A stretch of 64,000 nt of DNA from Wenzhouxiangella limi (GTDB lineage Bacteria; Pseudomonadota; Gammaproteobacteria; Xanthomonadales; Wenzhouxiangellaceae). The number at the start of each line of letters is the position of its first letter. The stretch's first letter is position 1. Below, in pieces: positions 572-5,447 of the stretch. Location: assembly GCF_010499265.1 (NCBI RefSeq), contig NZ_JAAGSC010000044.1:372521-436520 (forward strand), in the 5' to 3' direction. The notes beneath the pieces were generated by a model. That model had not been told where the DNA came from. It ran no database searches and worked only from the letters and a program-made list of their open reading frames with translations. A program made the position numbers and the translations under genes.

Positions 572-575
<4 letters not shown>
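1..575 (+). CDS. ntpE: V/A-type ATPase subunit E, 5' end outside window
   Basis: Peripheral-stalk subunit that links the A3B3 head to the membrane sector of a V/A-type ATPase. The frame is open from base 3, so the start lies upstream and about 190 C-terminal residues are seen. The N-terminal half is a charged Arg/Glu/Ala-rich helix, probably coiled coil. The C-terminal part has the hydrophobic GLKLVSGGLVVDMSL stretch expected of the globular head-binding domain of subunit E. The stop overlaps the next gene as ATGA, so translation is probably coupled to subunit A. The assignment rests mainly on position plus this C-terminal pattern, because subunit E diverges quickly. Confidence 0.8.
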
Positions 576-2318
<1,743 letters not shown>

Positions 2319-2329
<11 letters not shown>

Positions 2330-3710
2330 TGTCATCCTCAGCGGCGCCCTGACCGGGCTGGAAGGCCCGTTGCTGTTTGCCCGCCGCGAAGCCAACGTGG
2401 CCTTGAACGACGCCGTCGAGGTCATCGGTCGCGAGGGCCGGGGGCGGGTCGGCCGGGTATCGGCGCTGGACGAGGAAGCCATGGTCATCGAGGTGCTTGA
2501 ATCGACCACCGGGCTGGACCTGGACGGGACCCGCATCCGCATCCGCCAGCGGCCGCTGGAAATGGCGCTGGGCCCCGGTCTGCTGGGTCGGGTGTTCAAC
2601 AGCGTCGGGGCGCCGATCGACGGCGGTCCGGCGCTGCCGGCCGAGCGCCGCCAGCGCGTCGACGGCATGGCCATCAACCCGGCCGCGCGCGACCTGCCGC
2701 GCGATTTCATCGAGACCACGGTCTCGACCATCGATTTGATGAACAGCCTGGTCCGGGGCCAGAAGCTGCCGCTGTTTTCCTGCGGCGGCCTGCCGCACGA
2801 TCGCCTGGCCACCCAGATCGCCCAGCGTGCCCGGCTGCGCGACGCCCAGGCCGGCGAGTTCTGCGTGGTCTTCGTCGGCATCGGTGTGCCCTACGACACC
2901 GCCGAGAACTTCCGCTACGCGATGGAGAAATCCGGCGCCCTGGCGCACACGGCGATGTTTCTCAACCACGCCGACGAGCCGTCCACCCAGCGCCTGCTGA
3001 CCCCCAGGTTCGCGCTGACCGCGGCCGAGTACCTGGCCTTTGTCGAAGACCGGCACGTGCTGGTGGTGATGACCGACATGACCAACTACTGCGAAGCCCT
3101 GCGCGAGGTCTCGGCCAGCCACGGCGAGATCCCCAGCCGCAAGGGCTATCCCGGCTACATGTACTCCGACCTGGCGACCATTTTCGAGCGCGCCGGCTGC
3201 ATCAAGGGCCTGCCGGGAACCCTGACCCAGCTGCCCATTCTGACCATGCCCGGCGACGATATCGGCCACCCCATCCCGGACCTGACCGGCTACATCACCG
3301 AGGGCCAGATCGTGCTCGGGCGCGAGCTCGACCGCAAGGGCGTCTACCCGCCGGTCGAGGTGCTGCCCAGCCTGTCGCGTCTGATGGACGCCGGCACCGG
3401 CAAGGGCTATACCCATCCCGACCACCCGGCGCTTTCGAATCAGCTGTTCGCCTGCTACGCGCGCGCCAGCCGGGCGCGCGTGCTGGCTTCGGTCATGGGC
3501 GTCGACGGACTGCCGGAAACCGACCGCCGCTTTCTCGAATTCGGCGATGCTTTTGAGGAACGCCTGGTCAGCCAGCAATACCCGCGCACGCTCGAAGAAA
3601 GCATGGCGCTGGGCTGGGAGCTTCTGCGCGCTCTGCCGGTGTCAGAGCTGACGCGGCTGTCGGGCGAGCAGCTGGCCTGCTACATTGAAGCCCCGGCCGA
3701 GGCCGGCTAG
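2319..3710 (+). CDS. ntpB: V/A-type ATPase non-catalytic subunit B
   Basis: Regulatory subunit of the A3B3 head, 463 residues, usual length. It has no classical P-loop (FSCGGLPHDRLA occupies that place), as expected for subunit B, and it retains the VGIGVPYDTAENFR and TDMTNYCEALREVSA signatures. The ATG at 2319 is chosen because a strong AAGGAGG site lies at 2306-2312, six bases upstream. The longer open frame from 2262 has no such site and would run far into ntpA. The spacer to the next gene is only six bases. Confidence 0.95.
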
Positions 3711-3716
3711 CGCGCC

Positions 3717-4328
3717 GTGGCCGGGACCGAGACCAGCCCGACCCGCAGCGCCTTTCTCGAGCTGCAGGACGAGCGCCAGGTCGTGCGCGAGGGCTTCGAG
3801 TTCCTCGACGAGAAGCGCGTCATCCTGGCCCAGGAAATGCTGCACCGGCTGGAAGTCTTTCAGCTTGATCGAGGCCGCTACCAGGCCCTGCACGCCGAGG
3901 CCGTGGTCGCCGTGGCCCGCGCCCTGGGCCGACACGGGCTCGATGGGCTGGAAGTCCAGCCGCCGCAGGTGCTCAAGTCAGCCAGGCTTGATCTGCGCGA
4001 GCAGCCTTTTCTCGGCGTGAGTCTGGTCGATGCCGAACTGGACCTGGAGCCGGGTGCGGCTGAACCGGCAGTCAATCCCTCGCCGGAGGCCAGGCGCTGT
4101 GCCGCAGCCTTTGGCGAACTCACCCGGCTGGCGCTGGCCATGGCGGTCCAGCGATCCTGCCTCGAGCGCCTGATTGACGAATACATCCGCACCGAGCGCC
4201 GCGCCCGCGCGCTGGAAAACGTGGTCCTGCCTGAAATCACCGAATCGCTGGAATTCATCAACGAGCAGCTCGAAGCGGTTGACCAGGAAGAAGCCATCCG
4301 CGTCAGGACCGCGCGCAAAAGCGATTGA
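3717..4328 (+). CDS. ntpD: V/A-type ATPase subunit D (central stalk)
   Basis: Central rotor-stalk subunit, 203 residues, predicted mostly as two long helices at the N and C termini ([21 protein letters not shown] and the [19 protein letters not shown] region). The latter motif is typical of subunit D. The GTG start at 3717 follows ntpB by six bases. The stop codon lies inside the -35 box of the promoter for the downstream tRNA cluster. This is the last gene of the ATPase operon. Confidence 0.9.
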
Positions 4329-4369: not shown

Positions 4370-4446
4370 CGGGGTGTAGCGCAGCCTGGTAGCGCAACTG
4401 CTTTGGGAGCAGTAGGTCGCAGGTTCAAATCCTGCCACCCCGACCA
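4370..4446 (+). tRNA. tRNA-Pro(TGG)
   Basis: Complete cloverleaf of 77 nt. Acceptor CGGGGTG pairs with CACCCCG, the anticodon stem is ACTGC/GCAGT, loop TTTGGGA gives anticodon TGG, and the T arm is GCAGG/CCTGC. The CCA is encoded (4444-4446). It is the first gene of a tRNA cluster upstream of tig, an arrangement known from Xanthomonas-type genomes. Confidence 0.97.
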
Positions 4447-4497
4447 AAAATGACTTGATTTTGCGCCCGTAGCTCAACTGGATAGAGCATCGGCCTT

Positions 4498-5191
4498 TGA
4501 GCAGCGCAGCCTTCGGGTTGCGTGACAAAAGGAGCCCCTGTCGGGAAACGGAACCGGCAGGGTGGACTGCACTGTAACGGGGAAACCTTAGCGGCGGCCG
4601 CGGCCGGCCGATGGCAATCCCGTGGAAACCGTCGGTTGCCCTATCCGATGGAGTAAGATGTGTGGCGGGTTGGTTTTGGCCTTCTGCCATGCATCACACC
4701 AAGGAAAAAGGTGACCTGGGAGTCTTGAAGGCTCAGGTGGATTTGTTCGAGCAGGGATTTACGATCCTGCAGCCGCTGACCGAGCACGCCCCGTTTGATC
4801 TGGTGGCGTATCGAGGAGGACGCTTCGTTCGGATACAGGTCAAATATCGCAGATTGGACCGCACGGGAAAATTGGAAGTCAAGTTCTGGACTTCCTGGGC
4901 CGACAGAAATGGAACCCATAGCGTGCCAGTCGACAAGAACGAGGTCGACGTCTACTGTGTTTATTGCCCGGATACGGATGAATGCTATTACCTTGATCCT
5001 GGTCAATTTGGCTACTCGGCCTGCCTGAGGGTAAGGGCGACCAAGAATCGTCAATCGCGCGGCGTTCGTTTCGCGAGCGACTTTCGACGGGTTCCGTAGA
5101 GACTATACGTGCAGCACCTGAGAAGGTGAAGAGATAGTCCAGACCACAAACCCGGCCCAGGGCCGGGGCCGCGAAAGCGGTAGTTGGTAAG
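4498..5191 (+). mobile_element. Group I intron (tRNA-type) with homing endonuclease ORF
   Basis: The 694-nt insert begins after a U and ends with G (5191), as group I introns do. The catalytic core is visible. P3 pairs CTGCAC (4567-4572) with GTGCAG (5109-5114). P7 pairs GACTAT (5101-5106) with ATAGTC (5134-5139); the latter belongs to the conserved S element GAGATAGTCC. P8 is CACCT-GAGA-AGGTG (5115-5128). P9-like hairpins follow at 5151-5167 and 5169-5180 (the latter CCGC-GAAA-GCGG). Near the 5' end a UUCG-capped hairpin lies at about 4504-4523, and CCTTT at the splice site can pair with AAAGG near 4530 as P1. I could not settle the register that gives the usual G-U pair at the splice site. 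The coding ORF sits between P3 and P7, probably in the P6 region. Confidence 0.9.
4689..5099 (+). CDS. Intron-encoded PD-(D/E)XK homing endonuclease
   Basis: 136 residues from ATG 4689. The family-typical opening HTKEKGDLGVLKAQVDL follows at once, which is why this start is preferred over GTG 4662 or ATG 4611 in the same frame. The core fits the PD-(D/E)XK fold: APFDLVAY with Asp37, then RIQVKYR with Gln50-x-Lys52, where Gln replaces the usual acidic residue. This pattern is known from the group I intron endonuclease family typified by cyanobacterial I-Ssp6803I. A later VDVYCVYCPDTDECYYLDP segment also suits the family. The predicted job is to cut intronless tRNA-Arg genes near the insertion site and so spread the intron. 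The stop codon (5097-5099) lies two bases before the P7 strand, so ORF and ribozyme core are packed together. No damage to the ORF is visible. Confidence 0.85.
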   Translation: MHHTKEKGDLGVLKAQVDLFEQGFTILQPLTEHAPFDLVAYRGGRFVRIQVKYRRLDRTGKLEVKFWTSWADRNGTHSVPVDKNEVDVYCVYCPDTDECYYLDPGQFGYSACLRVRATKNRQSRGVRFASDFRRVP

Positions 5192-5288
5192 CTAAGCCGG
5201 CGGTTGCAGGTTCGAGTCCTGCCGGGCGCGCCATGACATTCGGTCCGGGTTACAATACCGGGCTCGGAAAAATAAAAGTTTTGCCTGT

Positions 5289-5365
5289 GGTGGGCGTAGC
5301 TCAGTTGGTAGAGCACTGGATTGTGGCTCCAGAGGTCGCGGGTTCAACCCCCGTCGCTCACCCCA
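5289..5365 (+). tRNA. tRNA-His(GTG)
   Basis: Acceptor GTGGGCG (5290-5296) pairs with CGCTCAC. An extra 5' G at 5289 can serve as the G-1 diagnostic of tRNA-His, facing discriminator C5362. The anticodon stem is CTGGA/TCCAG, and loop TTGTGGC gives GTG. CCA is encoded (5363-5365). Confidence 0.96.
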
Positions 5366-5371
5366 CCCATC

Positions 5372-5447
<76 letters not shown>

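What the first reader, a model, noticed from the sequence alone, without database searches (positions are those of the whole stretch)
4463..5233. Group I intron splits the anticodon of tRNA-Arg(TCT)
Removing 4498-5191 restores a perfect tRNA-Arg(UCU), and the insert shows P3, P7, P8 and an S element as expected of a group I ribozyme. The insertion lies between anticodon bases 34 and 35. Group I introns are known in a few bacterial tRNA genes (Leu-UAA, fMet, Ile-CAU, Arg-CCU). I do not know of a well-described case at Arg-UCU in this part of the gammaproteobacteria, so host range and site may be new. Decoding of AGA codons may depend on self-splicing here.
Basis: partly seen in the sequence, partly recalled or inferred. 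Interest (0 to 1): 0.9.

Follow-up and report, generated by a model that had tools for sequence, protein, structure and literature searches.

The report
Homing intron splits tRNA-Arg(UCU) anticodon
In this bacterium the only tRNA gene found for the arginine codon AGA is interrupted inside its anticodon by a group I intron that is predicted to splice itself out and that carries a gene for a likely DNA-cutting enzyme which would spread it; introns in this same tRNA gene were already reported in related bacteria, so the case itself is not new.

Summary
Removing 4498-5191 (694 nt) restores tRNA-Arg(UCU), and 65 aligned cores at the same site show a group I fold with a covarying P3, a conserved P7 and a U34·G splice-site pair. 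Rfam misses the window's intron but hits a 243-nt same-genus sibling without the endonuclease (34.2 bits, E 3e-7, below the cut-off).

No second tRNA-Arg(TCT) was found.

The site is not new: 62 of 75 related loci gave a complete core there, and Arg-TCT introns are reported for Beggiatoa and Thiomargarita. Of 30 genus genomes, 8 carry the intron (endonuclease intact in 5, remnant in 1, undetected in 2), 15 an uninterrupted gene, 7 gave no clear hit.

A lead goes further: endonuclease relatives outside introns also sit beside tRNA-Arg(UCU) in bacteria and phages, and in some cyanophage-like contigs a unit of spare tRNA-Arg(UCU) plus endonuclease is inserted in the anticodon loop of another tRNA-Arg(UCU). 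The family seems addressed to this anticodon with or without a ribozyme. Splicing and cleavage were not tested.

The parts
4463..4497 (+). tRNA-Arg(UCU) 5' exon (bases 1-34)
   Evidence: ARAGORN intron mode; spliced form folds as a tRNA
4498..5191 (+). group I intron, 694 nt, ends in G
   Evidence: sibling hit by RF00028
5192..5233 (+). tRNA-Arg(UCU) 3' exon (bases 35 to CCA)
4495..4498 (+). P1 5' strand: C32 U33 U34 and intron base 1
   Evidence: pairs with 4531-4534, 260/260 cells in 65 cores, U34.G in 65/65
4531..4534 (+). P1 3' strand (internal guide GGAG)
4536..4562 (+). P2 hairpin (4536-4544 with 4554-4562)
   Evidence: 580/585 cells paired, 8 of 9 pairs with compensatory change
4567..4572 (+). 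P3 5' strand
   Evidence: pairs with 5109-5114, 390/390 cells, 5 of 6 pairs compensatory; among the top blind covariation pairs
5109..5114 (+). P3 3' strand
4577..4623 (+). P4 (4577-4581 with 4619-4623) enclosing P5
   Evidence: P4 325/325 cells; RF00028 alignment of the sibling shows the same helices. The P5 count was mis-indexed
4624..4630 (+). P6 5' strand
   Evidence: read from sequence; pairs with 5090-5095; the count was mis-indexed and is not used
5090..5095 (+). P6 3' strand, inside the last codons of the endonuclease ORF
   Evidence: sequence; ORF end 5099
5101..5105 (+). P7 5' strand
   Evidence: pairs with 5135-5139, 324/325 cells, 1 of 5 pairs compensatory
5115..5128 (+). P8 hairpin
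5135..5139 (+). P7 3' strand (S element)
5151..5180 (+). P9 (5151-5156/5162-5167) and P9.1 (5169-5172/5177-5180, GAAA loop)
4689..5099 (+). PD-(D/E)XK homing endonuclease gene, 136 aa by family alignment (longest ORF begins 4611)
   Evidence: PF11645 131 bits for the longest ORF; 2ost by sequence E 4.6e-5 and by fold E 1.9e-7; dN/dS 0.08-0.09
4370..4446 (+). tRNA-Pro(UGG), upstream neighbour
5290..5365 (+). tRNA-His(GUG), downstream neighbour
5372..5447 (+). tRNA-Lys(CUU), downstream neighbour

Best explanation
A group I intron sits between bases 34 and 35 of the anticodon of the only tRNA-Arg(UCU) gene found here, is predicted to splice itself out of the precursor, and carries in its P6 loop a gene of the PD-(D/E)XK endonuclease family whose product likely cuts intron-free copies of the gene so that the intron would be copied into them. 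Shown by sequence: the exons restore the tRNA; [quoted passage not shown] P3 covaries and P7 is conserved; the intron ends in G; the ORF is of the I-Ssp6803I kind, with D, Q and K positions invariant. Shown by comparison: in one genus the same tRNA locus is found empty, with intron and intact endonuclease, with a decayed endonuclease, and with no detectable endonuclease, as the homing cycle predicts. Inferred: splicing with guanosine, cleavage of the empty anticodon site, and dependence of AGA decoding on splicing.
For: tRNA and intron limits; blind covariation on 65 cores, the top 12 pairs all in group I helices or the anticodon stem; helix counts; RF00028 on the same-genus sibling without endonuclease, 34.2 bits, E 3e-7; PF11645 131 bits against a cut-off of 26.1; the four best PDB fold matches are the four chains of 2ost, I-Ssp6803I; dN/dS 0.093 and 0.083 against the two nearest homologues; 8 of 30 genus genomes with the intron and 15 of 30 with an uninterrupted gene; all 15 uninterrupted loci lie between tRNA-Pro and tRNA-His, 14 of them with tRNA-Lys next; the endonuclease of L043, also named Wenzhouxiangella, groups with that of a Natronospira MAG and not with the window's, which fits horizontal movement.
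Against: No Rfam hit on the window itself, and the sibling hits stay below the curated cut-off. No transcript data. The P1 register was chosen by inspection of the same sequences. The exon motifs were part of the core search, so the shared site is partly by construction. The predicted endonuclease model is of moderate confidence (pLDDT 69). The cleavage site is inferred from location only. Of the 30 genus genomes, 7 gave no clear tRNA-Arg(TCT) hit.
Confidence: 0.92

Rival explanations
1. The intron has lost splicing and the interrupted gene is a pseudogene; AGA is read by another tRNA or by a copy not in the assembly.
For: No RNA data; AGA is rare (12 of 14,379 codons); the assembly has 44 contigs and its tRNA list lacks tRNA-Ile(GAT) and tRNA-Ala(TGC).
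Against: Both exons are intact and fold; the core helices counted are kept, including the U.G pair; of 40 tRNA matches none other reads TCT; the best full-length match to the spliced tRNA in this genome is 87%.
Confidence: 0.05
2. The endonuclease is no longer a homing enzyme, and the intron is inherited vertically as a fixed part of the tRNA gene.
For: Homing itself was not observed; two genus members have introns without a detected endonuclease.
Against: Strong purifying selection, invariant D, Q and K, 15 of 30 genus genomes with an uninterrupted gene in the same tRNA cluster, and a patchy spread over several phyla.
Confidence: 0.1
3. A protein-spliced intron of the archaeal bulge-helix-bulge kind.
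For: It lies in the anticodon loop.
Against: The 694-nt insert has the group I core with a covarying P3 and a conserved P7, and the sibling without endonuclease is hit by RF00028.
Confidence: 0.01

Closest known systems
[quoted passage not shown] Thiomargarita nelsonii Bud S10 and Beggiatoa BOGUAY (PMC4853749, passages read; MacGregor 2013 is cited there and was not read)
   Same: same tRNA and anticodon, gammaproteobacteria
   Different: the Bud S10 interrupted gene spans about 324 bp, too short for this endonuclease (inference); that paper says it did not determine secondary structure or type
I-Ssp6803I, PD-(D/E)XK homing endonuclease of the cyanobacterial tRNA-fMet intron (PDB 2ost; its biology is recalled)
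   Same: fold, family PF11645 (for the window's protein; for 2ost recalled), residence in a tRNA group I intron
   Different: other tRNA; only 23-24% identity in the fold alignments
Introns of tRNA-Leu(UAA), tRNA-fMet, tRNA-Ile(CAU) (Azoarcus) and tRNA-Arg(CCU) (recalled, in part PMC4033280, passages)
   Same: group I introns in bacterial anticodon loops; the tRNA-Leu intron also lies at 34/35 (recalled)
   Different: other host genes; no sequence comparison with them was made here
NCBI product name 'group I intron-associated PD-(D/E)XK endonuclease' on 2 of the 120 homologues listed (P0040, P0042)
   Same: same protein family, 74-75% identity
   Different: a name only; no description of the tRNA site was seen

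Membership tests
[quoted passage not shown]
   U34.G4532 in the window and 65/65 cores; register chosen by inspection
group I intron | P3/P7 pseudoknotted core with P4-P6 | tested here: met
   P3 390/390, P7 324/325, P4 325/325 cells; blind covariation. P6 read from sequence only
group I intron | intron ends in G | tested here: met
   G at 5191. For the other cores the search required GCTAA, so they are no independent test
group I intron | match to RF00028 at the curated cut-off | tested here: not met
   none on the window; siblings 34.2 and 28.9 bits against 50. A score threshold, not a biological feature
group I intron | guanosine-initiated self-splicing | not testable with these tools
   needs RNA
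group I intron subgroup IC3 (as known tRNA introns) | subgroup-specific peripheral elements | not tested
   no subgroup models at hand
I-Ssp6803I-like PD-(D/E)XK homing endonuclease | PF11645 above cut-off and fold of 2ost | tested here: met
   131 bits against 26.1; Foldseek E 1.9e-7
I-Ssp6803I-like PD-(D/E)XK homing endonuclease | catalytic D...QxK | tested here: met
   D37, Q50, K52 invariant in 24/24 rows and in 10/10 rows with phage members; their catalytic role is recalled
mobile (homing) intron | presence/absence polymorphism at one orthologous locus | tested here: met
   8 of 30 genus genomes with, 15 of 30 without, 7 undetermined
mobile (homing) intron | endonuclease cuts the empty site | not testable with these tools
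   needs the protein

The most novel reading that the evidence does not exclude
One endonuclease family is addressed to the anticodon of tRNA-Arg(UCU) and has found three ways of living with a gene that the cell cannot lose: inside a self-splicing intron (the window), beside the gene with or without an intron (bacteria, phages), and, in cyanophage-like genomes, inside an insertion in the anticodon loop that brings a complete spare tRNA-Arg(UCU) instead of a ribozyme. Ribozyme and endonuclease would then be separable partners that met at a shared target, so mobile introns such as this one arise when an endonuclease that already cuts the site enters an intron lying there.
Probability: 0.5. Interest if true: 0.85.

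Novelty: new member of a known kind. Interest (0 to 1): 0.5.

Why it matters
The intron itself adds a well-supported member to a known class and shows that the class is widespread at tRNA-Arg(UCU). Its value is as a system. Within one genus the same locus shows an empty gene, a full homing intron, a decaying one and one with no detectable endonuclease, and the family also occurs without an intron at the same tRNA in bacteria and phages. That makes two open questions directly testable: how an endonuclease and a ribozyme combine into a mobile intron, and why a cell tolerates a parasite in what may be the gene for its only AGA-decoding tRNA.

Tried and rejected
Rfam on the window: no hit; sought in siblings with short introns instead. 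ARAGORN reads Arg(tct) with the intron at base 36 in 43 of the 75 loci (my count). It labels others tRNA-Ser(gct) (e.g. L040, L041, L043, L044, L047); I read these as a one-base shift of the intron, since where the sequences were printed the exons are CTT and CTAA. Its Gln, Ser(tga), Phe, SeC, Stop and Leu labels for L042, L050, L063, L084, L091, L092 and L095 I take as similar misreadings. P5 and P6 were mis-indexed and are not used. The pattern was mis-specified and says nothing; repeated correctly on 11 genomes: no match in the 7 genus genomes and 1 family genome in doubt; G054 (same order), G000 and G014 matched. One search also lists a weak match in G043 (E 1.7e-4, 30 residues inside a 373-aa frame), which I do not count. 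The label of L220 in the tree was wrong: it has an intronless tRNA; L219 has the intron and was not in that tree. The nearest-tRNA test on viral clusters is modest: 11 of 20 clusters against 7.3 expected, P 0.005; 14 of 20 if immediate neighbours on either side are read by eye (L185, L205, L201 added); 6 of 20 sit beside other tRNAs. Of 8 clusters under 36% identity, 4 have a tRNA in the stretch and 1 of these lies nearest Arg(TCT). The identities used for that split are to the query of each search, so they are not all against one protein. Plasmids: no match in 72,556 records. Viral scan with alignment A1: no relative. Class survey: 4 of 184 genomes, the window's included, match the endonuclease profile, one of them over 35 residues only. 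I first counted 3 AGA codons in 7 housekeeping genes; all lie ahead of the likely true starts. NCBIfam: no model matched.

Not all data were used. Of 78 sources given to the core search, 65 gave a complete core and 13 did not: L083, L093, L096 and L102 have the endonuclease beside an intronless tRNA; L108 has it downstream of an intron-bearing one; L064, L082, L094, L103 and L109 are cut by contig ends; L062 and L073 lack an exon; L078 has an enlarged P2. In one search, 5 of 63 bacterial endonuclease matches were dropped for a stop or frame break. For the tree, 23 bacterial rows were removed to thin it, and only 32 of the 59 phage and viral loci were put in.

Full report
OBSERVATION. ARAGORN in intron mode finds tRNA-Arg(tct) at 4463-5233 with a 694-nt intron, 4498-5191, between bases 34 and 35; the default run lists seven other tRNAs only. 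The joined exons make a regular 77-nt tRNA with encoded CCA. The gene stands between tRNA-Pro(UGG) and tRNA-His(GUG)-tRNA-Lys(CUU).

GROUP I CORE. Rfam finds nothing on the window. Related loci were therefore collected with the endonuclease as bait: 75 loci in genome contigs. Of 78 sources (the window, those 75 and two same-genus loci), 65 gave a complete core at the site CTT|Y...G|CTAA; 62 of these are among the 75. Exon motifs were part of the search, so the shared site is partly by construction, but ARAGORN, which used no such motif, reads Arg(tct) with the intron at base 36 of the gene in 43 of the 75 (my count). With the endonuclease segment left out, blind mutual information put 24 of its 30 top pairs (my count of the printed table) into P2, P3, P4, P5, P8, P9, P9.1 or the anticodon stem, the first 12 without exception. 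Counts: P3 390/390 cells paired, 5 of 6 pairs with compensatory change; P4 325/325 (2 of 5); P7 324/325 (1 of 5); P2 580/585 (8 of 9); P1 260/260 (0 of 4) with U34·G in 65/65; P9.1 303/325 (4 of 5). P8 is 262/325 and P9 327/438, in part because I listed an end pair that does not form. P5 and P6 were mis-indexed there and are not counted. RF00028 hits the intron of a same-genus genome that has no detected endonuclease, over its whole model (L161, 34.2 bits, E 3e-7, cut-off 50), and one Bacillus sibling (28.9 bits); 10 other loci given to one search had no such hit. I also saw J8/7 base 5133 vary with P4 pair 4581-4619 and P3 pair 4568-5113, as a tertiary contact would, but this may only follow the split between phyla.

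CARGO. The ORF is PF11645 PDDEXK_5 at 131 bits. It matches I-Ssp6803I (2ost) by sequence (E 4.6e-5), and its predicted structure has the four chains of 2ost as its best PDB matches (model pLDDT 69). D37, Q50 and K52 are invariant in 24/24 and 10/10 rows. dN/dS is 0.093 and 0.083 against the two nearest homologues, so it is under selection as a protein. It lies in the P6 loop, and its last codons and stop (TAG, 5097-5099) run through the 3' strand of P6 into J6/7 (read). There are 1314 homologues at E <= 1e-5, and a source of the 120 listed 'group I intron-associated PD-(D/E)XK endonuclease'.

THE GENUS. The nearest named locus is a Wenzhouxiangella MAG. Among 30 genomes of the genus, the window's included, the intron is found in 8: with an intact endonuclease in 5, with two remnants in one (459-nt intron), and with no endonuclease match in two (243 and 281 nt). 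An uninterrupted full-length tRNA-Arg(TCT) at 96% identity or more is found in 15 of 30; all 15 loci have tRNA-Pro before it and tRNA-His after it, and 14 also tRNA-Lys. The remaining 7 gave no such hit; several are incomplete. This is the series that the homing cycle predicts. Outside the genus, 1 of the 31 same-family or same-order genomes carries intron and endonuclease (G053).

DEPENDENCE. The assembly (44 contigs, 99.59% complete) has 40 tRNA matches; reading all of them gives Arg anticodons CCG, CCT and ACG and no TCT besides the interrupted gene. tRNA-Ile(GAT) and tRNA-Ala(TGC) are also absent, so the list has gaps. AGA makes 12 of 14,379 codons in a rough, non-overlapping ORF set; the endonuclease itself has 2 in 136.

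PRIOR ART. [quoted passage not shown] PMC4033280 (passages) lists tRNA group I introns in cyanobacteria and alpha- and beta-proteobacteria. Nothing on tRNA-Arg(UCU) with this endonuclease appeared in the titles and abstract starts listed; most listings were cut to the best rows, and the library lacks most subscription papers.

BEYOND THE WINDOW. The endonuclease keeps this address without the intron. (a) In Bacilli (L081, L085, L087, L089, L090) the tRNA-Arg(TCT) has a 286-292-nt intron, too short for the gene, with remnants of its end read in L081, L090 and L110, and a copy of the ORF lies downstream of the tRNA (the last residues of L089 depart from the family, which suggests a frame break); in L110 and L108 the downstream copy is broken. 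(b) In L083 (Pimelobacter), L093 (Nocardioides), L096 and L102 (MAGs named Deltaproteobacteria and Kofleriaceae; L102 broken) it lies beside an intact, intronless tRNA-Arg(TCT), the only tRNA that ARAGORN finds in each 4.1-4.4 kb locus. (c) In Synechococcus phage Sf-FR1 and Acinetobacter phage Herod it lies just behind an intact tRNA-Arg(TCT); 33 of 50,697 phage records match at all, and I looked at the surroundings of 6, the 4 more distant ones lying near other tRNAs. (d) In viral contigs (57 loci) plus the two phages, of 20 clusters at 36% identity or more with a tRNA in the stretch held, the nearest tRNA is Arg(TCT) in 11 (7.3 expected, P 0.005), or 14 if immediate neighbours are read by eye; 6 sit beside others. 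(e) L219 and L220 share an endonuclease (one 80% cluster) and spacer, but the tRNA has the intron in one and not in the other. (f) In L185, L186 and L187 (L188 and L189 show the same sequence) a 568-nt unit holding a complete tRNA-Arg(TCT) and the endonuclease is inserted at the end of the anticodon of another tRNA-Arg(TCT), one or two bases from the intron's site; the outer halves joined are read as tRNA-Arg(tct) in 3 of 4 contexts tested, L190 being the exception. Whether the outer tRNA is used is unknown, and 'cyanophage-like' rests on likeness to the Sf-FR1 endonuclease.

VERDICT. A real group I intron with an apparently active homing endonuclease, at a site already known: a new member of a known kind. 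The shared address of the endonuclease across intron, flanking and spare-tRNA settings is the novel lead; it rests on gene order and needs cleavage data.

Noticed in passing
L081, L085, L087, L089, L090, L110, L108: In Bacilli the tRNA-Arg(TCT) intron is too short for the endonuclease and keeps remnants of its end (read in L081, L090, L110), while a copy of the gene lies downstream of the tRNA (broken in L110 and L108, perhaps in L089).
   Followed up: partly
L083, L093, L096, L102: Endonuclease gene beside an intact, intronless tRNA-Arg(TCT), the only tRNA found in the locus; L102's ORF has stops.
   Followed up: partly
L179 (Synechococcus phage Sf-FR1) 2851-3426; L180 (Acinetobacter phage Herod) 2906-3441: Phage relatives of the endonuclease lie directly behind an intact tRNA-Arg(TCT).
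   Followed up: partly
L185, L186, L187-L189, L190 around 1343-1914: A 568-nt unit of complete tRNA-Arg(TCT) plus endonuclease is inserted in the anticodon loop of another tRNA-Arg(TCT); an inverted repeat CTTAGAACAACC/GGTTGTTCTAAG brackets the inner tRNA. In L190 the outer halves do not make a tRNA.
   Followed up: partly
L219, L220: Two viral contigs with the same flanking endonuclease: tRNA-Arg(TCT) with the group I intron in one, without it in the other.
   Followed up: partly
L181, L182, L183, L184: More distant PDDEXK_5 phage proteins (about 30% identity) lie beside other tRNA genes (annotated Met, by ARAGORN Asn; Ser; Asp); L182 has tRNA-Arg(tcg) about 200 bp on.
   Followed up: no
window 5088-5099; L204, L206, L209-L213: The last codons of the endonuclease (GTTCCG/A TAG) double as P6/J6-7 of the ribozyme in introns and overlap the 5' end of tRNA-Arg by 6 bases in some phage contigs; possible microhomology for its entry into the intron.
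   Followed up: no
G007, G010, G016, G020-G023: Seven genus genomes gave no clear tRNA-Arg(TCT), three of them 95-98% complete; lost, unassembled or otherwise interrupted.
   Followed up: partly
window 572-4328: Genes that look like V/A-type ATPase subunits precede the tRNA cluster; the names are from reading the ORFs, not searched.
   Followed up: no
L064: Intron locus in a MAG labelled Halobacteria archaeon; its endonuclease nests among gammaproteobacterial ones, so the label is probably wrong or the contig foreign.
   Followed up: no
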